From Bacillus nitratireducens (GTDB taxonomy: Bacteria; Bacillota; Bacilli; Bacillales; Bacillaceae_G): a DNA stretch of 64,000 nucleotides. Shown here piece after piece: positions 11,570-22,085 of this stretch (positions are counted from its first letter, which is position 1; each line of letters opens with the position of its first letter). Position numbers and translations under genes: made by a program. The stretch is taken from positions 1 through 64,000 of the forward strand of contig NZ_MAOC01000021.1 in NCBI RefSeq assembly GCF_001884135.1. Reading direction: 5' to 3'. Under the pieces are notes generated by a model. The model did no database searches. It saw only the letters and a list, made by a program, of their open reading frames with translations, and had not been told where the DNA came from.

Positions 11570-12006
11570 GAATATATGAGGCAACAATTGCAGATTTAGA
11601 TGGACTAGCATCGGTTTTTAATAATTATCGCGTATTTTATCGACAAGATTCCGATATTGAAGGAGCAAAAGGATTTTTACGAAATCGAATCGAGAGAAAA
11701 GAATCCATTATTTTCGTGGCAGTTGAAGATGGAGAATATATCGGGTTCACGCAACTATATCCATCATTTTCTTCTATTTCGATGAAAGAGCTATGGATTT
11801 TAAATGATCTGTTTGTACAAAAGGCGAAGCGCGGAGCAGGAACAGGTAAAAAATTATTAGAAGCCGCTAAAGAATTTGCATTAGAAAATGGTGCGAAAGG
11901 TGTAAAATTACAAACGGAGATTGATAATTTATCAGCACAGCGATTATACGCTGAAAATGGTTATTTGAGAGATAATCGTTATTTCCATTATGAATTAACT
12001 TTTTGA
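11566..12006 (+). CDS. GNAT-family N-acetyltransferase
   Basis: This 146-residue protein has the GNAT fold. A beta-strand LWILNDLFVQKAKRG leads to the acetyl-CoA loop AKRGAGTGKKLLEAA, followed by KGVKLQTEIDNLSAQRLYAENG, where Leu-Tyr-Asn-like packing is typical of small-molecule acetylators. It is translationally coupled to the TrmO-like gene by a four-base overlap. The substrate is unknown. Its natural terminator downstream is interrupted by the mobile element: the left arm of that hairpin begins 11 bases after the stop. Confidence 0.8.
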   Translation: MRIYEATIADLDGLASVFNNYRVFYRQDSDIEGAKGFLRNRIERKESIIFVAVEDGEYIGFTQLYPSFSSISMKELWILNDLFVQKAKRGAGTGKKLLEAAKEFALENGAKGVKLQTEIDNLSAQRLYAENGYLRDNRYFHYELTF

Positions 12007-12017
12007 AATATACATAG

Positions 12018-12041
12018 TTAAATGAGACGTTTTTACTCTGT
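12018..12041 (+). terminator. Left arm of a terminator split by the mobile element
   Basis: This 24-base arm pairs with 21530-21553 on the far side of the element. Thirteen consecutive base pairs at the base (TTAAATGAGACGT) continue as eleven more positions with two G-U wobbles and one mismatch. Without the element the two arms would enclose the eight-base loop AAAATAAA and form a bidirectional terminator for the convergent GNAT and HAD-IIIA genes. Confidence 0.8.
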
Positions 12042-12090
12042 AAAATAAAGAATGATTAATGGTTCTCTTTCCTTACTAAGAGTAAAGAAC

Positions 12091-12115
12091 TTATATAATG
12101 TTACACATTATATAA
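12091..12115 (+). repeat. Left subterminal inverted repeat (palindromic)
   Basis: A palindrome of arms TTATATAATGT and ACATTATATAA around TAC lies 41 bases inside the left core repeat. Its reverse complement recurs at the right end, so it is a probable recombinase binding site. Confidence 0.75.
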
Positions 12116-12121
12116 GTATTG

Positions 12122-12154
12122 GTACATTACTTAATGAAAGTGATGTACTTTTTT
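12122..12154 (+). terminator. Terminator at the left end of the element
   Basis: GTACATTACTT (12122-12132) pairs with AAGTGATGTAC (12138-12148) and six T's follow. It would stop read-through from the GNAT side into the element. Confidence 0.75.
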
Positions 12155-12176
12155 AATTTTACAGACCTCTACATGG

Positions 12177-12193
12177 CCTCATTTACAACAACA
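12177..12193 (+). repeat. Second left subterminal inverted repeat
   Basis: CCTCATTTACAACAACA matches the reverse complement of 21368-21384 at 16 of 17 positions and lies at a similar distance from the element end (127 against 138 bases). Confidence 0.6.
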
Positions 12194-12215
12194 ACACATC
12201 CTCATGAAAAGCACA

Positions 12216-12245
12216 TTTACAGCACCAATTACTTTTAGGTATAAT
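12216..12245 (+). promoter_or_regulatory. Promoter of the recombination module
   Basis: A -35 TTTACA (12216-12221) and a perfect -10 TATAAT (12240-12245) with an 18-base spacer lie about 50 bases before the HTH gene. Confidence 0.65.
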
Positions 12246-12293
12246 AAGAACATGTTTTATTTTTGAATTTTCAATCTAATTTGAGGTGGTTAG

Positions 12294-12848
12294 ATGAAAG
12301 TATATACAGTGAAAGAGATGGCGACCGCTTTAGGGAAACACGAAGAAACCATTAAGCGCTGGCTACGCTCTGGCAAGTTTCCGAACGCATTTCGCAATAG
12401 CGACAAGCAAGGATGGAAGATTCCTGAAAGTGACCTTGTATATATTAAGCACGGAATAGGATTTGTAAAAGAAGATTCTCGAAAAAGTCCCTCAGTTGCA
12501 CAACAAGAAGTTGATGAATGGAATTTAGTAAAATTAGCATATGAGGCAGTCACCTTGATATCTCCTACGGAGGAAATTTTTACTATTCTGTCTGATGTTG
12601 GGATTAAACGAACCTTAGAAATTCTACTGATTATGCAACAATCCGCTACAAAAGTAAAAAACCCTGACGGGTTTATTAAGAAAGCCATTCGAGAGAATTG
12701 GAGTCCAACGACTGTTCCTGTCAAATTATCAAAGAAGCAAAGTAAACGTATCTACGACCTTACCCAACAGGATTACGAGGCAATGTGGAATCAGAAAAAG
12801 CATGAATTTCAATCCAAAGTACCTCTTTTCAATTGGTTGGAAGAATGA
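12294..12848 (+). CDS. Helix-turn-helix (excisionase-like) protein of the element
   Basis: The 184-residue protein starts at ATG 12294 behind GAGGTGG. Its N-terminus VKEMATALGKHEETIKRWLR followed by KQGWKIPESDL is an excisionase/MerR-type DNA-binding domain with a recognition helix and wing. The remaining 120 residues are basic and helical without a domain I recognise. As first gene of the module, 33 bases before the first recombinase, it is likely the directionality factor or the regulator of the recombinases. It could bind the subterminal repeats immediately upstream of its promoter. This is inference; no intact relative is named here with confidence. Confidence 0.7.
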   Translation: MKVYTVKEMATALGKHEETIKRWLRSGKFPNAFRNSDKQGWKIPESDLVYIKHGIGFVKEDSRKSPSVAQQEVDEWNLVKLAYEAVTLISPTEEIFTILSDVGIKRTLEILLIMQQSATKVKNPDGFIKKAIRENWSPTTVPVKLSKKQSKRIYDLTQQDYEAMWNQKKHEFQSKVPLFNWLEE

Positions 12849-12881
12849 TTTGCTTAGTTCGTCTGACAGGAGATTGTGAAA

Positions 12882-14237
12882 ATGCAAAATAGTTATTACC
12901 ACTTATATTGTCCAAAAGATGTTCAAAGCCGATACAAATTGCTCGTATTTAACGCTAGTAACGAACCGTTTTTACCGCTAACTGACTTTTATGATGATGT
13001 CAGCAGGAAAATCTCAGAAAGTTCGGCTTTGTCGTATCTACAATGCCTTCTACCATTTTTTGGTTGGTTGGATAAATACAGCAATTATCAAGGGAAACGT
13101 GTGCAGTGGAGTGATTCTCCAGAATCCATACGAATTGCTGTGGAAGATTATTTGATGGATGAAATGGCTTGTAAAGTTCGAGAAAAGGATTCTTTTCGTT
13201 TTATCAATCGTTCCAATAAAAGTCCGAATACGGTCCATCGCTTTCTTTCCGCTCTCAAGTCGTTTTATAAGTCCTTGATTACGCTGAGACAGTATAGCTA
13301 TCCCAATCCTCTTATCGACTCTCATGCGATATTAGATGATTATAAAACAAATACCGAAGGTGTAAGAGAAAACAAACCGCGAATGTCTGCCGAAGCAGGA
13401 ACGGAAGACCCGCTTGTGCATAGACGTTTGACAGATTCCTACTTCAAGCTCATTAACGAGGAATGGCAGCCTGAAATCATTGATGATCCTCTTCTCTACC
13501 ATAAAGTCAAACAGGCTGGCAATCAGGCAAATTGGTCATTGCGGGAGAAGGTCATCGTCCGTATGTTATTTGAGACAGGAGCAAGGGCATCTGAAGTAAT
13601 TAAACTTATGATTGGGGACTATCGTTCCCGTAAGTCCTTTCAAGAAGTCAGCACGTTTAATAAAGGGAGTCACGGTCGCAGAGTGAAATTTCTTCGCTTT
13701 AGCAAAGACACCACGAAACTCCTGTTTCAATATATCAACAAGGAACGGAAAATATTTGACCCTTTAGGGCAGGATTTTGATTCCCTACCTAACGATGCAC
13801 CCATGTTCCTGACGGAACGAGGAACACCGTTGTCATATCAGACCTGGTATCCGCACTGGAATAAGGTCATGACGTTGATGGACATAAGGTTAAATCCGCA
13901 CAAAACAAGACATTGGTTTGTTACGACAAGCATGCGTGAAATTTATAATGTCTCCAAAACTGATGCAGAAATTGCCCAACGTAAAGATGAACTTATTACA
14001 TATATGAAATGGAGACAAAAAGACACGATTGAAGTGTATGAACACCACTTTGACGAGGAAAGGCATCGGGGTTTTCATGACAAGATGTTGGAACATATAG
14101 CAGAGAAAGAAAAGGAATACATAAAGCAGCCAAAACAAACAAAAAAGCCAGCTATGACTGTTGTAGACACAGCAAAAGACATAGAGTTAGAAATGGATAT
14201 ACAAGCTCTACTGGATGATTTGGAGGATGCATTATGA
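12882..14237 (+). CDS. Tyrosine recombinase, TnpA-like
   Basis: This 451-residue site-specific recombinase has an N-terminal SAM-like core-binding region (SALSYLQCLLPFFGWLDKYS) and a C-terminal catalytic domain. Catalytic residues seen are Arg235 in ETGARASEV, His340 and Arg343 in NPHKTRHWFVTT, and the nucleophile Tyr386 in DTIEVYEHHF. ATG 12882 lies nine bases after AGGAG; the GTG at 12876 is too close to that site. It overlaps the next recombinase by the four bases ATGA, so the two are made together. Paired tyrosine recombinases of unequal size followed by a small third protein are the arrangement of Tn554-type elements, where both cooperate in insertion and excision. Confidence 0.85.
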   Translation: MQNSYYHLYCPKDVQSRYKLLVFNASNEPFLPLTDFYDDVSRKISESSALSYLQCLLPFFGWLDKYSNYQGKRVQWSDSPESIRIAVEDYLMDEMACKVREKDSFRFINRSNKSPNTVHRFLSALKSFYKSLITLRQYSYPNPLIDSHAILDDYKTNTEGVRENKPRMSAEAGTEDPLVHRRLTDSYFKLINEEWQPEIIDDPLLYHKVKQAGNQANWSLREKVIVRMLFETGARASEVIKLMIGDYRSRKSFQEVSTFNKGSHGRRVKFLRFSKDTTKLLFQYINKERKIFDPLGQDFDSLPNDAPMFLTERGTPLSYQTWYPHWNKVMTLMDIRLNPHKTRHWFVTTSMREIYNVSKTDAEIAQRKDELITYMKWRQKDTIEVYEHHFDEERHRGFHDKMLEHIAEKEKEYIKQPKQTKKPAMTVVDTAKDIELEMDIQALLDDLEDAL

Positions 14238-16366
14238 CAACAATAACGGATTTACCTATCTCCTTATTTTATAATGAATTAATAGGAAAAGTGGATGAAC
14301 ACCTTCTTCATTTGCAGGATAACAGAGGTGTGTTTTTGTTAGATAAATTGGACGAAAAACCTATAAAATATTTTCTCAATCAGTGTCTAAATACACCTTG
14401 GCAGAATCAATTTTTATTTGCGATGCTTATTAACGGAGACAGAAACTTAGATGCTAATACCATAGCAAACCTACTTCGTTCATTATGTCCAAGAATCAAG
14501 GATATATTCCATGCTTATGATTTACAAACCTTTGCTGATTTTGATACAGAAAAACACATGTATGATTATTTGAAACGTCTTATTTACCCTGAACATTCAA
14601 ATAATCAAAGATCCGCATTTTTAAGACGGTACAAATCCGTTTCTTACTCGACTAAAAAATGGTTCACGTCAAAATTAAACCAAGAACAACAGGAGTATTT
14701 TCAACAATTCTTACTCCCTACACCTATGTTTGATAGCCGAGATTTCTTGTTTTCTAAACAAGCAAGAGAACAAGCTCAAAACACTCGAAAGAGTGAAACG
14801 GATGCCATTGTCCCTAATCTTCCTCAGATTCGGGCAGAAGCAAACTTCCGATGGAATCAGATGAAACGATTGCGAGAAGCCTTTCTAGCAGCTTGTAAGC
14901 AAGCGGAAAAGAGAGAGATAGCATTACCCATAGAATTCCATTATGATGAACCTGAACGTATCGGAGAGCGGTTTTACTTCCGCTTATGGGACAAACCTTC
15001 CTTTGTTCTGTACCACAAAGAGAAATTTACAGAAGTCGTTGTAACATCAGCTGAAAAGCGTACACACGCATATTTGGAGGCCAACAATTATTATTTTGTA
15101 GAATTTGTAAAAGCCGAACGATCGGAAGATGATGATGTAGCGGAAGGTCTATGGTTTGCAGAAATCTTACAAGAAGGTGTATTAGGAAAGTGGTGTCAAA
15201 ATGCGACGGACGAAGAGTTAGAACGGAAACGTGAACTCCTAGTCTCATGGGGATATGGCGAAGAAGGATTAACCAACAATCCTAAACCTTTCGAGTCTTT
15301 TCACAAAGGCGTTTTATCTCAAACTACTTTTGTTTCTCAACAAAGAGACAAAGCCGAAGGTATTTTATTCGATATGGAGCCATTCTATGTTGCTTCAACC
15401 TTCGGTCTATTGGCGGTAGACATTCTGACGACAACAGGAGCGAGAAGAAATGAACTACTACAAATTAATTCTTCAGAAGATGGTCTACGAGCTATGAGAG
15501 TAGGTGGCGATTTAAAATATTCCTTCTACGCTGTCCCAGAAGGACGAGATACGGTTGAGTCTTACACAATTAGCAAGCAAACCTTTGAACTAATGAAGAG
15601 AGTTAATAGGATGCTGAAAGAACATTATAATGGAGCAATGCCAAGTGTAAAGTATCGAGGTGACAGGAATCACCTATTTCCAGAGCCAAAGCCTTATTTT
15701 TTTCAATACGACAAGAAAGGACTTATGGAAAGAACCATTCATTCATGTCTCCGTTTTCTCTTGCATGGATTGCATTTTGAGACACAAGAAGGAAAACCTG
15801 TGGTCCTTAAAACGCACTTACTACGTCATGCGTTCGCAACAGAAGCTGTTCAACGTCAGGAAATTCCCGTTGATATTGTAGCAAAAATCCTCCATCAGCG
15901 TGATTTGAATGTAACAAGGTATTACTCTGAACCCACTCCAAGTCAAGTAGCTGAAAAGATTGGAGAATTGCACGGCGTAATTTCAAACTATGTTGACTTA
16001 GATGAAGCGATTCTTCGCAGTCCTGAAGAAATTCAGCGGGAATGGGAGGAATACAAAACCAAAGTAGGTGTATATAACAATGTACTGGGCGGTACTTGCG
16101 TCACAGATAAAGTATGTCCTGTAAAAATGGCATGTTTGGGATGTGTAGCAAAAATTCCGCAACCTGAGAAGAAACATGAACTCCTTGAAGTGGTTGACTT
16201 ATCTAAGGATATGGAAAAGCGGTATGCTTCCCTGGGTTTGACAATTGAAGTAAATAAGGCGAAACAGATGCGGAAACTTGCGAGAAACGAATTAAAGGAA
16301 ATTGAATTGATTGAGAACTATCGGGAGGAACAGACATATGAACCAGACGTTTCCTTCAAAAGATAA
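14234..16366 (+). CDS. Large tyrosine recombinase, TnpB-like, with C-terminal cysteine cluster
   Basis: This 710-residue protein has a long N-terminal half without recognised domains and a catalytic domain from about residue 385. The active-site residues are Arg404 in TTGARRNELL, His528 and Arg531 in KTHLLRHAFAT, His554 in KILHQRD, and the nucleophile Tyr563 or Tyr564 in TRYYSEP. A cysteine cluster C622-x5-C628-x5-C634-x2-C637 follows the catalytic domain and probably binds zinc, as in TnpB of Tn554-type elements. It starts at the ATGA overlap with the first recombinase, and its 3' end overlaps the next gene by 29 bases. All active-site residues are present, so the element could still be mobile. 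Confidence 0.83.
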   Translation: MTTITDLPISLFYNELIGKVDEHLLHLQDNRGVFLLDKLDEKPIKYFLNQCLNTPWQNQFLFAMLINGDRNLDANTIANLLRSLCPRIKDIFHAYDLQTFADFDTEKHMYDYLKRLIYPEHSNNQRSAFLRRYKSVSYSTKKWFTSKLNQEQQEYFQQFLLPTPMFDSRDFLFSKQAREQAQNTRKSETDAIVPNLPQIRAEANFRWNQMKRLREAFLAACKQAEKREIALPIEFHYDEPERIGERFYFRLWDKPSFVLYHKEKFTEVVVTSAEKRTHAYLEANNYYFVEFVKAERSEDDDVAEGLWFAEILQEGVLGKWCQNATDEELERKRELLVSWGYGEEGLTNNPKPFESFHKGVLSQTTFVSQQRDKAEGILFDMEPFYVASTFGLLAVDILTTTGARRNELLQINSSEDGLRAMRVGGDLKYSFYAVPEGRDTVESYTISKQTFELMKRVNRMLKEHYNGAMPSVKYRGDRNHLFPEPKPYFFQYDKKGLMERTIHSCLRFLLHGLHFETQEGKPVVLKTHLLRHAFATEAVQRQEIPVDIVAKILHQRDLNVTRYYSEPTPSQVAEKIGELHGVISNYVDLDEAILRSPEEIQREWEEYKTKVGVYNNVLGGTCVTDKVCPVKMACLGCVAKIPQPEKKHELLEVVDLSKDMEKRYASLGLTIEVNKAKQMRKLARNELKEIELIENYREEQTYEPDVSFKR

Positions 16367-16811
16367 CCGAACGTGGCTCAAAGAGATTCATGAATCTCGA
16401 AGCCAGCGTTCTCTCTTGTTAGGGAAAGAGGCAATTGACCTTCTGGTCAAACAAAATCTCCCTGTTACACTCAAGACTGTATCAGAGAAGTCAAAAGAGA
16501 TTGATCCCGAAGGGAAAGGGATTCATCGTAACACGATTGGTACAAATCAAGAATTGAATGCGTATTATAAGCAGCACAGCAAAACATATAAACAAAAAAT
16601 AAATTCTAACAAATCCACACGAAAACATGGTATTGAATTTCTCCCTGTTGACTATCGACGCATAAATACAGAACGCAATATAGAAAATGTCAGGAAAAAG
16701 TATATGGAACTCTCAAAAAAAGAGCTTGTACACCGACTAATCTTAGCGGAACAATATATTATAAAAAGCAATCGAACTTGGATAGAAAACCAATTTGAGC
16801 AATTTAAGTAA
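16338..16811 (+). CDS. Small TnpC/DUF6262-like accessory recombination protein
   Basis: The 157-residue basic protein starts at ATG 16338 behind GGGAGGAA, inside the end of the large recombinase gene. Its N-terminal half (LLLGKEAIDLLVKQNLP, TLKTVSEKSKEID, HRNTIGTNQELN) has the pattern of TnpC or DUF6262 proteins, which begin with a small helix-turn-helix and end in a coiled coil. Here the C-terminus (KKELVHRLILAEQYII) is also helical. In Tn554, TnpC influences orientation and efficiency of transposition. The strict gene order after two recombinases is the main support. Confidence 0.7.
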   Translation: MNQTFPSKDNRTWLKEIHESRSQRSLLLGKEAIDLLVKQNLPVTLKTVSEKSKEIDPEGKGIHRNTIGTNQELNAYYKQHSKTYKQKINSNKSTRKHGIEFLPVDYRRINTERNIENVRKKYMELSKKELVHRLILAEQYIIKSNRTWIENQFEQFK

Positions 16812-16859
16812 TGGAAAAGATATTTAAAATATAATGACAATTTGTAGTGAGGGGATAAA

Positions 16860-19800
16860 ATGAGAAAAATTAATGAGATACAAATGAAATTAGGAGAATT
16901 AAATGGCGGAGAATTTCAAAAATTAATGGATACATATTTTTCAAGAGAATATAAAGGTAGTAATTTGTATCCTATAGGTTCTGTATTAGAAAATAATAAT
17001 ACTAAAACAGGTACCCCAGATACATTGATAAAGCCTATTGGTGAAAAATATGTATATATTGAGTATACTGTGCAGAAAAATAATATTGTTTCTAAATTTA
17101 AAGATGATATCTCTAAATGTTTTGATGAAGAGAAAACAGGCATACCAAAAAATTTAATTGGAAAAATAATTTGCTGTTGTAACACTAGATTAGGAACAAG
17201 TGAAATTGAAGAATTAGTTTCTATAGGAAGAGATAATGACATTGTTGTTGAAGTTATTTCTTTAGATTCAATAGCTTATAAATTAATGGAATTTCCTTTT
17301 CTTATTAAAGATTTTTTGGGAATCGCTATTGATACGCAACAAATATTAGAAATAGAGGATTTTGTTAGTATTAATGATAGTGCAAAATTAGCTACGCCAT
17401 TAAAAGTGGATATTTTTGGAAGGGAAGAAAAAATTGAAAATATATTAAAAGCAATGGATGAAGAGCAGATAATATTAATATCAGGGTTGCCTGGGGTAGG
17501 AAAGACTAGACTCGCGTTAGAAGTTATGAAGCGTTTTAAAGAACAACATAATGAGTATAAGTTGAAATGTTTAAGGAACAATGGACAAAATATATATGAT
17601 GATTTGAATTTATATTTCAGTGAATCAGGTTCATATTTACTTATGATTGACGATGCTAATTTATTAACTAATATTCAACTAATATTAGATTTATTTAGTT
17701 GGGCATCAAAAGGGATAAAAATTAAATTAATATTAACTGTTAGAGACTATGCAGAAGAAAAAACGATAGAAAAAATCTCTAATTACTCTTTTAAAACTTT
17801 TAAAATAAAGGCTTTGACCGAAGAAACTATTAAGTTATTATGTGAATATTTAGGTGTTTTAAATATAATATATATAGAACGTATTAACGAGATAGCAAAA
17901 GGAAATCCAAGGTTAGCAATTATGGGATGTACAACAGCAAAAAAAGAAGATAGTCTAAGCAGTTTATCGAATGTGGTTGATATAGTGGAATCTTATTATC
18001 GAGAGATTAAGTCCTATTTTGAAACAGAGTTGCAGAATGAAGAATTATTAAAAGTTGGTGCATTGCTTAGCTTTCTAAATCATGTGAATTTAAAAGATGA
18101 TGAAAACATAGAGATGGTATGTAGTGTCGTAAATCAAGATAAAGAGACTTTCGTAGAGAATGTATATAAACTACATTCAATGGAAATAGTCGACATATAT
18201 GAAAATGAACTCGTAAAAATCTCTGATCAAATATTAAGTATTTACATTTTTTACTTATCTGTTTTCAAAAGAAAAGATCTTTTATATAAAACATTGATAG
18301 AAAATTTTTATCCATCATTAAAAGGTAGGATAGTTGAAAACTTAAATAGCGTATTTTCATATTTTTATAAAGAAGAAAATTTAAACATTGTAAAGGATGC
18401 AATAAAAGAAATTTTTGAAGAAAGTAAACAAAACTTTGAAGAAAATGAAACAGAGGTTTTCTTAATAACCTTTTTGTTTGGACTTGAAATTGAAGGACTA
18501 TTATATGCGAAAAAGAAAATTGATGCTTTTGAAGTTAACGATTCTATAGATGAGATTAGCTTTGAAATAAAAAATAATAATGAATGTACTAATATTCTTA
18601 AGTTGTTAGGGGGGTATAAAAACTCTGAATATTATTTGGAAGCTATAGATTTAATTTTATTATATTTAGAAAAACAGCCTACAGAATTCTCTTCAGTATA
18701 TAAAGTTTTAATTGATAATTATGGATTTGATGAAAAATCAGATGTTTACGGATATGTTCAACAACTTGAATTATTAAAAAAAATCAACCAAAGTTATGAT
18801 TTGAAAAAAGATATTCTTTATAAGAATCTTTTAATTAAAATTATTGAATACTTTTTAGAATTTAAGTATGAGTATACAAGGATGAAAAGTAATAGGGGTA
18901 TGGTTTTTTATAAAATTCCAGTTTATTTAGAGGGGAATTTACCACAAATCAGAAAAGAAATATGGGCTAAACTAAGAGACTTATATAATCAAAATATTAA
19001 TGTATATGATCTTCATAAAATTTTATATAACTACGGTAGAAACAATTTTGAATCGATTGATGAAAAAGTTCTGAATTTTGATAAGGGATTTATAGAATCG
19101 ATAATTTATGACATTCAGGAATTAACTTTAGAACAAAGCATAGTATATAACAGATTAAAAGATTTATTTGAAAGATATGAAATCTATTTTGATGGAGAAG
19201 TAGAAAAAAAGATAGAAACAAAAGAATATCTTATATATAAGAGAATTTTTAGTGAACCAAAATGCAATGATGAAGATAGACTTATTGAAGAAAAAGAACT
19301 AATAGATTGGAGTCAAAACCTTACGGATGAGGATTTTTATGAAATATTTAGAATTTGTAATCAAGTGACCGCTATAGATTACTTGAATTCTAATAGTTAT
19401 AGCACAAGTGAAAAAATAGAAATTTTACTTTTAAATACTCCTATTAATGAGAGAATAACTATTCTAAATATGTTTTTTGAGGAAAATATAAAGATAAGTT
19501 TACATCCTTTAAATATAATCAAGAATGTAAAGGATTTAACTCATCTAGAACAAAGCATTTTAAATGTAGAATTTTATAATAAAAATTATTGGTTATATTG
19601 TATCTATAGAGAAATGAGTATTTTGAATCCAAATACTGAGTTGTTAAAAAAGATATATGAATATTTTAATAAACCTGAGGGTGAGGTAGCAGGATATAGT
19701 AGAGATATTACTTTTTTAAAAGCATTTATCGATATAGATGAAAATATTTTTGTTAATGTTATTAACTTACTTTTAGAACAGGAAGATATAGTGTTTTTAA

Positions 19801-20564
19801 GAAGTGTAGAATCTTTTTTATTGTCTTGTGCAGAAAATGAAGAGTATATAACTATCTATTTAAAAAACGATTTAAGTCTATTGAAAACTTTATACTTAAA
19901 ATTGTTAAGTATTAGAAAGCATTTTGATTATGATTCATCCTTTTTAAAAGTTATAGTAAGAAGAAATTCAGCAATTTTAAAAGAAATATTAGAAAGTATC
20001 CTTGTAGATGAAAAAACTACTTATAAATTTAATGAAGAAATTAATTTTGCATTTATTTGGAATGAAGAAAACTGGGGTGAATTAGCGGATTTAGTAAGTG
20101 AGATTGTTGAAAAGTATGTATATGAAAAAGGAAAATATTATGCTGCTAAGGACTTGTTGGAAAAATTATTAACTTTAGATGGTGAAAATAGTAAAAAACT
20201 TTATAAATGGATTGAATCAAAAATTATAGAATGGGCAAAAAATGAAGAGTTGATTATAAGTTTATATGAATGTTTAACTAAGTTTGAGAATGAAAAGCAA
20301 ATAGAATGGATTGTGAAATTAATACAAATAAGAATGGATTTTGTATTCTTTAAAAGGATACCACTTTTACCACGTAGTTATTCGTGGAGCGGAAGCGAGA
20401 TACCAATTTTACGAGAGCATCAGTCACTTTATCAACAACTTAGTGATAAGGTACAAGGAATTCAATTTCTGGAACATAAAAAATGGTTACAAGAGAAAAT
20501 AGAGTATATAGAGAAAAAAATTAAAAGAGTTAAGGTTAAGGAATTAGCAGAAGATTTATATTGA
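16860..20564 (+). CDS. PD-(D/E)XK-like nuclease fused to a STAND NTPase; probable anti-phage defence protein
   Basis: The 1,234-residue protein starts at ATG 16860 behind GAGGGG. Residues 1-160 look like a PD-(D/E)XK nuclease: GGEFQKLMDTYF (Glu18), GTPDTLIKP (Asp54), and YIEYTVQKN (Glu68, Gln72, Lys73). Residues 180-360 are a STAND NTPase core: FGREEKIENIL, Walker A GLPGVGKTR (209-217), Walker B YLLMIDDA (259-266), the RDYA sensor motif (295-298) and GNPRLAI (348-354). The remaining 870 residues are Leu-, Ile-, Glu- and Lys-rich helices without strict repeats, suitable as a ligand-sensing solenoid. Avs proteins have this architecture: a phage protein binds the sensor, the NTPase oligomerises, and the nuclease degrades DNA. 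Family membership below STAND level is not assigned. The gene is very AT-rich and is the main cargo of the mobile element. Confidence 0.78.
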   Translation: MRKINEIQMKLGELNGGEFQKLMDTYFSREYKGSNLYPIGSVLENNNTKTGTPDTLIKPIGEKYVYIEYTVQKNNIVSKFKDDISKCFDEEKTGIPKNLIGKIICCCNTRLGTSEIEELVSIGRDNDIVVEVISLDSIAYKLMEFPFLIKDFLGIAIDTQQILEIEDFVSINDSAKLATPLKVDIFGREEKIENILKAMDEEQIILISGLPGVGKTRLALEVMKRFKEQHNEYKLKCLRNNGQNIYDDLNLYFSESGSYLLMIDDANLLTNIQLILDLFSWASKGIKIKLILTVRDYAEEKTIEKISNYSFKTFKIKALTEETIKLLCEYLGVLNIIYIERINEIAKGNPRLAIMGCTTAKKEDSLSSLSNVVDIVESYYREIKSYFETELQNEELLKVGALLSFLNHVNLKDDENIEMVCSVVNQDKETFVENVYKLHSMEIVDIYENELVKISDQILSIYIFYLSVFKRKDLLYKTLIENFYPSLKGRIVENLNSVFSYFYKEENLNIVKDAIKEIFEESKQNFEENETEVFLITFLFGLEIEGLLYAKKKIDAFEVNDSIDEISFEIKNNNECTNILKLLGGYKNSEYYLEAIDLILLYLEKQPTEFSSVYKVLIDNYGFDEKSDVYGYVQQLELLKKINQSYDLKKDILYKNLLIKIIEYFLEFKYEYTRMKSNRGMVFYKIPVYLEGNLPQIRKEIWAKLRDLYNQNINVYDLHKILYNYGRNNFESIDEKVLNFDKGFIESIIYDIQELTLEQSIVYNRLKDLFERYEIYFDGEVEKKIETKEYLIYKRIFSEPKCNDEDRLIEEKELIDWSQNLTDEDFYEIFRICNQVTAIDYLNSNSYSTSEKIEILLLNTPINERITILNMFFEENIKISLHPLNIIKNVKDLTHLEQSILNVEFYNKNYWLYCIYREMSILNPNTELLKKIYEYFNKPEGEVAGYSRDITFLKAFIDIDENIFVNVINLLLEQEDIVFLRSVESFLLSCAENEEYITIYLKNDLSLLKTLYLKLLSIRKHFDYDSSFLKVIVRRNSAILKEILESILVDEKTTYKFNEEINFAFIWNEENWGELADLVSEIVEKYVYEKGKYYAAKDLLEKLLTLDGENSKKLYKWIESKIIEWAKNEELIISLYECLTKFENEKQIEWIVKLIQIRMDFVFFKRIPLLPRSYSWSGSEIPILREHQSLYQQLSDKVQGIQFLEHKKWLQEKIEYIEKKIKRVKVKELAEDLY

Positions 20565-20612
20565 ATCTTTTAATCAAACTTTTTATAAAAATCAAACTTA
20601 AATCTGCTGGAG

Positions 20613-20658
20613 AAGAATCCATTTTGATCAATCTTTTTTCAAAATGGATTCTTTTTAC
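20613..20658 (+). terminator. Terminator of the STAND gene
   Basis: AAGAATCCATTTTGA (20613-20627) pairs perfectly with TCAAAATGGATTCTT (20639-20653) and T's follow. Confidence 0.85.
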
Positions 20659-20692
20659 TTATCATGAAATACGGGTTTACGAGGTATTTTGA

Positions 20693-21313
20693 TTAAACTT
20701 TATTTCACAGCTACATTTATAAGAGTCAATTGTACAGTGAAAATAAAGTTGTTTCATTTATAATAAATTCGTTTAAAAGTTAATAAAGATGTTTAATTTT
20801 AATGCTTTTTAGAGAAGGATAGTTTAATAAGATGTGATATGTTTAAATAAAAGCAGGGTTTTTAGGGGGGGTATATGAAATATACATGTCCATGTTGTGG
20901 TTATAAAACCTTAGAAGAGGAACCACCAGGTACATTTGACATTTGCAGTATCTGTTTCTGGGAAGATGATAACGTTCAATTTGATGATCCTGATTATGAA
21001 GGCGGAGCGAATGAGGAGTCTTTGAGACAATATCAAAAAGCCTTTTTAATGAGGCATGTTAATCGAAACCTAACCAATAGAAATGAACGTGATCCAAACT
21101 GGAGATCGCTTTTCGAAAAGTAATGTTTGTTACACTCGTCAACTAATAGATACCTTTGTTCCATACGAATTGAGTTTTAAACGACTTTATTATTGCTGAT
21201 TTTTTCAAAATTAGAGAAGGATAAATAAAATTAAACAATTATTTTAAACATCGTTTGATTGTTCAGACGGTGTTAAGCGTGTTTATAGCGTAGAAATTAA
21301 ACAACTTTATTAT
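20693..21313. repeat. Cluster of TTAAACAACTTTATTAT-like motifs flanking the CPCC gene
   Basis: Copies of one AT-rich motif occur in both orientations. Forward: TTAAACTTTATTT at 20693, TTAAACGACTTTATTAT at 21177-21193 and TTAAACAACTTTATTAT at 21297-21313. Inverted: AATAAAGTTGTTT at 20742-20754, AATAAATTCGTTTAA at 20762-20776 and AATAAAGATGTTTAA at 20782-20796. The 20742 copy is an exact 13-base inverse of the last copy. They could be recombinase accessory sites or operators. AT-richness raises the chance of coincidence for the weaker copies. Confidence 0.5.
20875..21123 (+). CDS. CPCC family cysteine-rich protein
   Basis: This 82-residue protein begins KYTCPCCGYKTL and continues DICSICFWEDD; the two CxxC pairs would bind one zinc ion. 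It then has DPDYEGGANEESLRQYQ, typical of the small cysteine-rich CPCC family found in many bacteria. Its function is unknown to me. ATG 20875 follows a run of seven G's that includes a usable ribosome site. It lies inside the element after the STAND gene's terminator, so it is expressed separately and is a second cargo gene. Whether it is linked to defence is not known. Confidence 0.8.
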   Translation: MKYTCPCCGYKTLEEEPPGTFDICSICFWEDDNVQFDDPDYEGGANEESLRQYQKAFLMRHVNRNLTNRNERDPNWRSLFEK

Positions 21314-21367
21314 CATTACACATCAATGAGAGCATTAAGTTGATAACAAGTCGACAGCCAATACAAA

Positions 21368-21384
21368 TGTTGTGGTAAATGAGG
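21368..21384 (-). repeat. Second right subterminal inverted repeat
   Basis: TGTTGTGGTAAATGAGG is the inverted partner of 12177-12193 with one mismatch. Confidence 0.6.
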
Positions 21385-21403
21385 TCATTTGTGGTACAAA
21401 AAA

Positions 21404-21441
21404 GGATAGAACATACAGAATTATTCTGCCTGTCACTATCC
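21404..21441. terminator. Bidirectional terminator at the right end of the element
   Basis: GGATAG (21404-21409) pairs with CTATCC (21436-21441) around a further ACAG...CTGT stem. Six or more A's precede the hairpin, and a T-rich tract follows it. The rest of 21124-21557 contains the motif cluster, the inverted repeats and the element end, and no gene. Confidence 0.65.
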
Positions 21442-21454
21442 TCTTCTTTTATTC

Positions 21455-21479
21455 TTATATAATGTGTAACATTATATGT
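21455..21479 (-). repeat. Right subterminal inverted repeat (palindromic)
   Basis: This is the reverse complement of 12091-12115 at about 23 of 25 positions, with central GTA instead of TAC. It lies 43 bases inside the right core repeat, against 41 on the left. Confidence 0.75.
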
Positions 21480-21529
21480 CTATTCTTGTTAAAACAAAGA
21501 TTAATTCAAATTTCTTGAATCTAAATAAA

Positions 21530-21553
21530 ACAAAGTGAAGACGTCTCATTTAA
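21530..21553 (+). terminator. Right arm of the split terminator
   Basis: This 24-base arm (ending GACGTCTCATTTAA) pairs with 12018-12041 across the element and directly abuts the right AAATAAA copy. A T tract follows, and the minus-strand HAD-IIIA gene ends five bases beyond. Confidence 0.8.
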
Positions 21554-21557
21554 TTTT

Positions 21558-22085
21558 TTATTGATGGTTTAAAATCCAATTTGTAGCATCTTCAAAGTTT
21601 TTTGCAATGTAGTTTGGTTCAATATGTGCCCATTTATCTCGGAACGTATGTAAAGCATCATATCCAGCGCCAGTTTGAACTAATATAGTCGTTGCATTTA
21701 CTTTTTCCCCAGCAACAATATCCGTCCAGCGATCACCGATTACCGCGCATTTTGTTAAATCAAGCCCATGTTTTTCCGCTGCTTTTAGGAGCATACCTGT
21801 GCTCGGTTTGCGACATTCACATCCATCACCATGTTTATGAGGGCAAAGATAAATATCATCAAAACCAAACTCTTTTAATTCTTTCGCAAAATCATTCGTA
21901 GTTGCTTTTCCATCCGCGATACCTGGTTGATTCGTAAAAGAGAATAGTTTAATATTTTGGGCTTTTAACTTTTGTAAAGATTTCTTTGTAAAAGGAAACA
22001 ATGTGAAAGAACCAGGATAATGTATTGTAGTATCACCGCCAATTGTTCCGTCACGATCAATGAAAATAGCTTCAATGTTTTTCAT
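21558..22085 (-). CDS. HAD-IIIA family phosphatase, GmhB/histidinol-phosphatase-like
   Basis: The 175-residue protein has HAD motif I FIDRDGTIGGD, motif II FSFTNQPG, a zinc-binding loop CPHKHGDGCECRKPS (Cys-x-His and Cys-x-Cys ligands), and motif IV GDRWTDIVAG. This is the layout of D-glycero-manno-heptose-1,7-bisphosphate 7-phosphatase and histidinol-phosphate phosphatase relatives, which act on small phosphates in the cytoplasm. Bacilli without heptose pathways also carry it, so the substrate is open. It converges with the GNAT gene; the terminator they once shared is now split by the mobile element. Confidence 0.85.
   Translation of the reverse strand: MKNIEAIFIDRDGTIGGDTTIHYPGSFTLFPFTKKSLQKLKAQNIKLFSFTNQPGIADGKATTNDFAKELKEFGFDDIYLCPHKHGDGCECRKPSTGMLLKAAEKHGLDLTKCAVIGDRWTDIVAGEKVNATTILVQTGAGYDALHTFRDKWAHIEPNYIAKNFEDATNWILNHQ

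What the first reader, a model, noticed from the sequence alone, without database searches (positions are those of the whole stretch)
16860..20564. Mobile single-gene nuclease-STAND protein, a probable Avs-like defence system
A 1,234-residue protein joins a PD-(D/E)XK-like N-terminus (Glu18, Asp54, Glu68 with Lys73) to a STAND ATPase (Walker A GLPGVGKTR, Walker B LLMIDDA, RDYA and GNPRLAI motifs) and about 870 residues of helical sensor-like sequence. It is the main cargo of a site-specific mobile element and is far more AT-rich than the recombinase genes. Avs systems use this logic to sense phage proteins, but this protein is shorter than the 1,500-2,000-residue Avs2-4 group and its nuclease motif IEYTVQK is atypical. 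It may be a new subfamily.
Basis: partly seen in the sequence, partly recalled or inferred. Interest (0 to 1): 0.82.

Follow-up and report, generated by a model that had tools for sequence, protein, structure and literature searches.

The report
Mobile nuclease-type STAND immune receptor
A mobile DNA element carries one very large bacterial gene that looks like an immune receptor, with a nuclease-like head, an ATP-driven switch and a long sensing tail; in some other bacteria the same switch and tail occur with a different kind of effector.

Summary
The 1,234-aa ORF is intact, AT-rich (25.2% GC against 39-40% for the two recombinases) and lies in an element with matched inverted ends. It belongs to a rare family (14 full-length proteins compared, 1,231-1,274 aa) found in four named phyla, the window and a viral contig. 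Pfam recognises only the NTPase; no NCBIfam Avs model matches.

A threonine (T70) stands where the catalytic lysine is expected; K79 is invariant.

Two results add most. Residues from about 163 to the end are homologous to two cyanobacterial STANDs that begin with an EAD10 adaptor and have a caspase-like gene nearby: one receptor body, two outputs. And 6 of 15 family loci have a known or candidate defence gene next door, one copy lying between hsdS and hsdR (no background rate measured).

Best reading: a tripartite abortive-infection receptor that works like Avs but is not Avs2. New variant of a known kind.

The parts
12010..21561 (.). Mobile element, from one inverted end to the other, between two convergent genes (GNAT gene ending 12006, HAD-IIIA gene ending 21558)
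   Evidence: Inverted ends; genes. No empty site was seen.
12294..12848 (+). HTH_17 (excisionase-like) gene, 184 aa
   Evidence: Pfam HTH_17 38.6 bits; NCBIfam excise 21.0 bits, below its cut-off of 28.8
12876..14237 (+). Tyrosine recombinase, 453 aa
   Evidence: Phage_integrase PF00589 42 bits
14234..16366 (+). Second recombinase, 710 aa
   Evidence: PF00589 24.4 bits, below the cut-off of 27.1; 53.5% identical to a Lysinibacillus site-specific integrase
16311..16811 (+). Small ORF, up to 166 aa, TnpC/GinD-like by position only
   Evidence: No Pfam family up to E 1; position
16850..16854 (+). AGGGG, ribosome-binding-like site
   Evidence: Sequence
16860..20564 (+). Nuclease-type STAND receptor gene, 1,234 aa
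   Evidence: family alignments
16860..17354 (+). N-terminal PD-(D/E)XK-type domain, residues 1-165; D54 at 17019-17021, E68 at 17061-17063, T70 at 17067-17069, K79 at 17094-17096
   Evidence: Profile link to VRR_NUC and Mrr_cat; conservation
17397..17939 (+). STAND NTPase, residues 180-360; Walker A lysine K215 at 17502-17504
   Evidence: Pfam NB-ARC 26.3 bits over the 23.5 cut-off, nSTAND3 26.5 under the 27.2 cut-off; 14 of 14 conserved motifs
17940..20561 (+). C-terminal region, residues 361-1234, presumed sensor
   Evidence: Homologous over 830 columns to EAD10-STAND proteins; mean pairwise identity 21-27% from residue 481 on, 39% in residues 361-480, against 39-41% in the head and NTPase
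20613..20653 (+). Perfect 15-bp hairpin followed by a T run, terminator-like, within the 145-bp repeat
20875..21123 (+). CPCC cysteine-rich gene, second cargo gene
   Evidence: PF14206 82.7 bits

Best explanation
A single-gene immune receptor carried as cargo by a tyrosine-recombinase element. The C-terminal ~870 residues keep the protein off and sense an infection signal; on binding, the STAND NTPase exchanges nucleotide and the protein oligomerises; this brings the N-terminal PD-(D/E)XK-type domains together, which damage DNA and stop the infected cell (abortive infection). Shown here: the three-part order, conserved NTPase motifs, the profile link of the N-terminus to PD-(D/E)XK nucleases, the same receptor body with EAD10 in place of this N-terminus, the patchy spread, the defence neighbours. 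Inferred: a phage trigger, oligomerisation, DNA cutting, cell death.
For: NTPase motifs identical in 14 of 14. N-terminal profile aligns GTPD54...E68-x-T70 with GxPD...E-x-K of VRR_NUC (score 29.1; 10 shuffles at most 14.0) and FQxL plus GxPD with Mrr_cat (30.3; at most 15.2). Receptor body shared with EAD10-STANDs, E 4.6e-26, which have Peptidase_C14 genes close by. 6 of 15 loci have an adjacent PADLOC hit of 75 bits or more (scans). Homologue in a viral contig beside a DUF2971/PDC-S31 gene and AbiH. A relative of the carrier element bears a PDC-S28 helicase, 936.7 bits. Avs1-4 and other STANDs are known to work in this way (PMC12931631, passages).
Against: T70 replaces the expected lysine in 16 of 17, the seventeenth having G, and E68 is lost in 2 of 17, so nuclease activity is doubtful in some members. 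The profile links span only 28 and 42 columns, and the HsdR N-terminus gave none. The window's own neighbours are not known defence genes, and 9 of 15 loci show no defence neighbour that I count. No background rate for neighbours was measured. No structure and no experiment.
Confidence: 0.72

Rival explanations
1. The N-terminal domain has a nuclease fold that no longer cuts. It binds nucleic acid or recruits a partner, and the receptor acts by sequestration or through another protein; still defence.
For: T70 in place of the lysine; E68 replaced by M in L024 and A in L055. EAD10 in the sister proteins is a recruiting, not a catalytic, domain.
Against: D54, K79, D83 and K92 are identical in 17 of 17, which suggests a kept active site; no partner gene is fixed next door.
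Confidence: 0.25
2. The system guards against plasmids or rival mobile elements rather than phages, serving its own carrier element or plasmid.
For: It sits on a mobile element here, on plasmids in Leptospira and on a viral contig.
Against: Some copies are between ordinary chromosomal-type genes (L058); known nuclease-STANDs sense phage proteins.
Confidence: 0.15
3. It is not an immune protein but a STAND-type regulator of transcription or metabolism.
For: STAND proteins include the regulator MalT (PMC10427625, start of the abstract seen in the listing).
Against: Pfam shows no DNA-binding HTH in it; the head resembles nucleases; mobile and defence-linked settings; no fixed target operon in the neighbourhoods listed.
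Confidence: 0.05

Closest known systems
EAD10-STAND proteins with a caspase-like (Peptidase_C14) gene nearby, cyanobacterial loci L056 and L057
   Same: STAND NTPase plus the whole C-terminal region: columns 163-1254, E 4.6e-26; C-terminal part alone 830 columns, score 100.1, 20 block shuffles at most 33.4
   Different: N-terminus is EAD10 (86.4 and 28.5 bits) instead of the nuclease-type domain, and a separate caspase-like gene is the likely effector
Avs (AVAST) proteins, Avs2 tested
   Same: Effector-STAND-sensor order; nuclease effectors in Avs1-4 (PMC12931631, passages)
   Different: Against three Avs2-like proteins only the NTPase aligns (83.5%, 98 columns); N-terminal and C-terminal parts give 0.4% and 0.1%; no NCBIfam Avs hit up to E 1
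PD-Lambda-4 component A
   Same: STAND NTPase, 97.0%, E 1e-10 over 207 columns; adjacent gene in one Leptospira plasmid (824.7 bits)
   Different: N-terminal and C-terminal parts do not align (0.3% each); I compared a single sequence
Tn554 and GInt elements (for the carrier)
   Same: Several tyrosine recombinases plus a small protein, then cargo (GInt: PMC5385486, abstract and two passages; Tn554 features partly recalled)
   Different: GInts have three integrases and flanking direct repeats; here two recombinases, an upstream HTH gene and inverted ends

Membership tests
STAND NTPase | P-loop NTPase with Walker A, Walker B and the downstream arginine/GNPR-type motifs | tested here: met
   NB-ARC over its cut-off, nSTAND3 just under; motifs in 14 of 14
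PD-(D/E)XK nuclease | Profile or fold kinship to the superfamily | tested here: inconclusive
   hhalign 37.5% to VRR_NUC and 52.4% to Mrr_cat, well above shuffles, but short (28 and 42 columns); no link to one HsdR N-terminus. Pfam: VRR_NUC in 1 of 17 (E 0.011), L_protein_N in 2 of 17 (best E 0.00048), nothing for the window's own domain. PDB search: chance hits only
PD-(D/E)XK nuclease | Catalytic D-(D/E)-x-K, lysine two residues after the acid | tested here: not met
   D54 17 of 17, E68 15 of 17, but T70 in 16 of 17 and G in one at the lysine place; K79 17 of 17 may stand in (inference)
Avs2 | Match to the curated Avs2 model NF041813 (cut-off 1000 bits) | tested here: not met
   No Avs hit among the NCBIfam families up to E 1; the model is in the library
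Avs2 | Homologous effector and sensor regions | tested here: not met
   0.4% and 0.1% against three Avs2-like proteins
Avs in general | Senses a phage terminase, portal or similar protein | not testable with these tools
   Needs an experiment
Avs1, Avs3, Avs4, Avs5 | Direct profile comparison of effector and sensor | not tested
   Only the NCBIfam and PADLOC scans bear on it
PD-Lambda-4 | Homology outside the NTPase | tested here: not met
   0.3% each for the N- and C-terminal parts; 2 of 8 family members match the PADLOC model weakly (best E 0.0018)
EAD10-STAND/caspase conflict system | Same STAND and C-terminal body | tested here: met
EAD10-STAND/caspase conflict system | EAD10 N-terminus and caspase partner | tested here: not met
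   No EAD10 in the window protein; no peptidase beside it
GInt island | Three integrases plus GinD | tested here: not met
   Two recombinases, one small ORF, one HTH gene

The most novel reading that the evidence does not exclude
One old STAND-plus-sensor body has been wired, in different bacteria, to two unlike outputs: a built-in nuclease-type head whose catalytic lysine has moved (T70 in its usual place, invariant K79 further on), or an EAD10 adaptor that calls a caspase-like protease. The window carries the nuclease form as a mobile single-gene cassette.
Probability: 0.4. Interest if true: 0.68.

Novelty: new variant of a known kind. Interest (0 to 1): 0.56.

Why it matters
If right, it adds a widely scattered but rare receptor family that the family libraries used here do not name, and it gives a natural experiment: the same sensor body with two different effectors. 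That would let one test whether STAND receptors pass on their signal without regard to the effector, as is thought for NLRs. The nuclease site without its usual lysine would test how far PD-(D/E)XK chemistry can drift.

Tried and rejected
Avs2 membership: rejected. PD-Lambda-4 membership: rejected beyond the NTPase. PDB sequence searches gave nothing credible: single sequence, best E 0.023 (heme oxygenase); four-row profile, best E 0.056 (UvrA P-loop); N-terminal profile, best E 0.13 (hemagglutinin, a chance hit). Single-sequence scans of the genome and viral collections found no relative; the four-row alignment found five genome loci, the eight-row one a single viral contig; three further viral scans for this family found no new full-length homologue, L065 matching over 38 P-loop residues only. 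L023's upstream cysteine desulfurase matches SspA/DndA at 425.6/420.6 bits; I take it for a housekeeping-type enzyme and did not count it as defence. The HsdR N-terminus gave no profile link (15.1; shuffles to 21.5). The tree joins the window to G570 (97/95), but both are long branches and the program warns of a false join, so I draw nothing from it. Gamma-Mobile-Trio was thought of from memory for the carrier element; the paper search was not followed further. Bacillota beyond the window could not be sampled for the family, because I had no genome handle from that phylum. Paper searches that bear on novelty; nothing listed there was recognised as this family, and the library lacks most subscription journals.
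Full report
Check of the observation. The ORF at 16860-20564 (+) is 1,234 aa without internal stops, with AGGGG at 16850-16854. GC is 25.2% (third positions 17.9%), against 40.2% and 38.6% for the two recombinase genes and 33.7% for the window. Pfam sees only the NTPase: NB-ARC 26.3 bits (cut-off 23.5; residues 190-234) and nSTAND3 26.5 (cut-off 27.2; residues 190-314), with other P-loop families below their cut-offs. PADLOC gives two weak hits on the NTPase (mad8 24.3 bits, MkoA 15.3). NCBIfam gives nothing near a cut-off.

The element. Between two convergent genes (a GNAT gene ending at 12006 and a HAD-IIIA gene ending at 21558) lie an HTH_17 gene, two tyrosine recombinases (453 and 710 aa), a small ORF, the large gene and a CPCC gene. 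The second recombinase scores 24.4 bits to PF00589, under the cut-off of 27.1. The ends match as inverted repeats (12010-12041 / 21530-21561, 81%; 12093-12119 / 21451-21477, 96%; 12173-12193 / 21368-21388, 90%). Their local alignment scores 58, against at most 36 in 500 shuffles and 39 in 490 random window pairs; with lenient scoring the margin is smaller (140 against at most 125 in 100 shuffles). I saw no empty site, and no whole genome is held for the window. The Bacillus-like source is my reading of the flanking genes and was not tested. The 710-aa protein matches 54 of 72,556 plasmid records. The best is a Lysinibacillus plasmid (53.5%), where the recombinases are followed by a small gene, two unknown genes and a helicase that matches PADLOC PDC-S28 at 936.7 bits. 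I looked at three of the enterobacterial records (27-28% identity): one lies beside CBASS genes (Proteus), one beside tmexCD2-toprJ2 (Klebsiella), one beside insertion sequences (E. coli). The layout recalls GInt islands and Tn554, but GInts have three integrases and direct repeats (PMC5385486, abstract and two passages).

The family. tblastn finds 13 of 72,556 plasmid records, all Leptospira, and none of 50,697 phage records. Full-length genes are rare. In the phylum samples they were found in 1 of 398 genomes (Psychromonas phylum; the starting genome itself), 3 of 292 (Microcoleus phylum, starting genome included, plus one partial) and 2 of 297 (Desulfobacteraceae phylum, starting genome included, plus two broken copies). 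In the order samples: 2 of 243 full-length, starting genome included, plus one cut at a contig end, 1 of 194 (the starting genome), 2 of 151, starting genome included. I compared 14 full-length proteins of 1,231-1,274 aa, the window included.

The N-terminal domain. In 17 N-termini, G51, P53, D54, K79, D83, C87 and K92 are identical in all; Q20, D24 and T70 in 16; E68 in 15; E18 in 2; K73 in 4. With hhalign the profile aligns GTPD54...E68-x-T70 with GxPD...E-x-K of VRR_NUC (score 29.1, P 37.5%, 28 columns) and FQxL plus GxPD with Mrr_cat (score 30.3, P 52.4%, 42 columns). Ten column shuffles reach at most 14.0 and 15.2, reversals at most 11.9 and 10.1; VRR_NUC against Mrr_cat gives only 12.7; one HsdR N-terminus gives no link (15.1; shuffles to 21.5). 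Pfam on the same 17 members, E up to 10: VRR_NUC in one (E 0.011), L_protein_N in two (best E 0.00048; from memory, the N-terminus of bunyavirus L proteins, which holds an endonuclease), a dozen other scattered hits, and nothing for the window's own. PADLOC: one AbiEi hit, E 0.025. So the nuclease fold is supported, not proven, and the lysine is not at its usual place. K79 as a moved lysine is my inference.

One body, two outputs. Two cyanobacterial proteins (L056, L057), met through, align with the family over columns 163-1254 (1,044 columns, E 4.6e-26). The C-terminal part alone scores 100.1 over 830 columns, against 20.0 for the reversed profile and at most 33.4 for 20 block shuffles. Pairwise BLAST from the window alone reaches only residues 160-495 (E 1.8e-12 and 3.3e-7), so the C-terminal link rests on profiles. 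Their N-termini hold EAD10 (86.4 and 28.5 bits); each has a Peptidase_C14 gene nearby (66.5 and 67.1 bits; one gene apart in L056, adjacent in L057), and in L056 that protein also carries EAD10 (25.6 bits, cut-off 24.1). Exchange of EAD10 for other effectors, restriction-endonuclease type among them, on a fixed core is described for a different system in PMC8195603 (passages). The searches listed no account that I recognised of this pair of architectures.

Neighbours. I scanned one or both adjacent genes of 15 loci (14 full-length copies and the interrupted copy L061) with PADLOC. Six of 15 have an adjacent hit of 75 bits or more: L002 PD-Lambda-4_A 824.7; L009 PDC-S69 365.1; L042 (L059) SoFic 146.7; L047 PDC-S31 79.6, with AbiH one gene on (Pfam 101.5 bits); L024 (L060) ZorD/Mrr-like 75.0; L061 HsdS 299.0 and HsdR 1460.3. 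The other nine, the window among them, show nothing above 25 bits, apart from L023's cysteine desulfurase (425.6 bits to SspA), which I did not count. PADLOC saw only one side for L002, L009, L024, L042, L047, L048 and L055; the fragments L012, L025, L049 and L062 were not scanned. No background rate was measured.

Comparison with known systems. Avs proteins share the tripartite plan, and Avs1-4 have nuclease effectors that kill the cell (PMC12931631, passages). The window protein has no Avs hit in NCBIfam up to E 1 (the Avs2 model is in the library). Against three Avs2-like proteins only the NTPase aligns (83.5%, 98 columns); the N- and C-terminal parts give 0.4% and 0.1%. PD-Lambda-4_A is closer at the NTPase (97.0%, E 1e-10) but not outside it. 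The same passages give nSTAND3 for Avs5, the Pfam model that the window nearly reaches; Avs5 itself was not compared. I therefore call it a new family that works like Avs, and the nuclease-type sister of EAD10-STANDs.

Mechanism and confidence. Shown: architecture, conserved switch motifs, a profile link to nucleases, a shared receptor body, mobility and defence settings. Inferred: sensing of phage, oligomerisation, DNA damage, abortive infection. My odds: immune receptor about 0.85; acting by cutting nucleic acid about 0.6; the explanation as stated, taken as a working model, 0.72.

Noticed in passing
window 20573-20717: A ~145-bp intergenic repeat with a perfect 15-bp hairpin: 58 places in 37 of 72,556 plasmid records, mostly Bacillaceae and relatives, and 1 of 50,697 phage records; 78-92% identity in the 10 closest. 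RNA folding z -3.5; Rfam's only hit is far below its gathering score. One copy of its core in the window. Possibly a small mobile repeat; unexplained.
   Followed up: partly
window 20875-21123; L006 7170-7433: A CPCC cysteine-rich gene is the second cargo gene (82.7 bits); on a Metabacillus plasmid a gene annotated as CPCC family also lies near a copy of the 145-bp repeat.
   Followed up: no
   Followed up: partly
L002 6001-12850 (Leptospira interrogans plasmid pLiSL35): Two different STAND genes stand side by side: the family member and a PD-Lambda-4_A relative (824.7 bits), 151 bp apart.
   Followed up: partly
L047 7179-14553 (IMG/VR contig): Behind tail and lysis-type genes lies a cargo block: the receptor, a DUF2971/PDC-S31 gene, AbiH, and a fragment of a contractile-injection tape-measure protein.
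   Followed up: partly
L118 6290-14674 and L117 9542-21437: Distant relatives of the recombinase set stand beside CBASS genes in Proteus and beside tmexCD2-toprJ2 in Klebsiella.
   Followed up: no
L012 7989-8585; L062 5679-6721: Broken family copies: an N-terminal stump of 198 aa, and a copy that keeps only its first ~135 and last ~210 residues.
   Followed up: no
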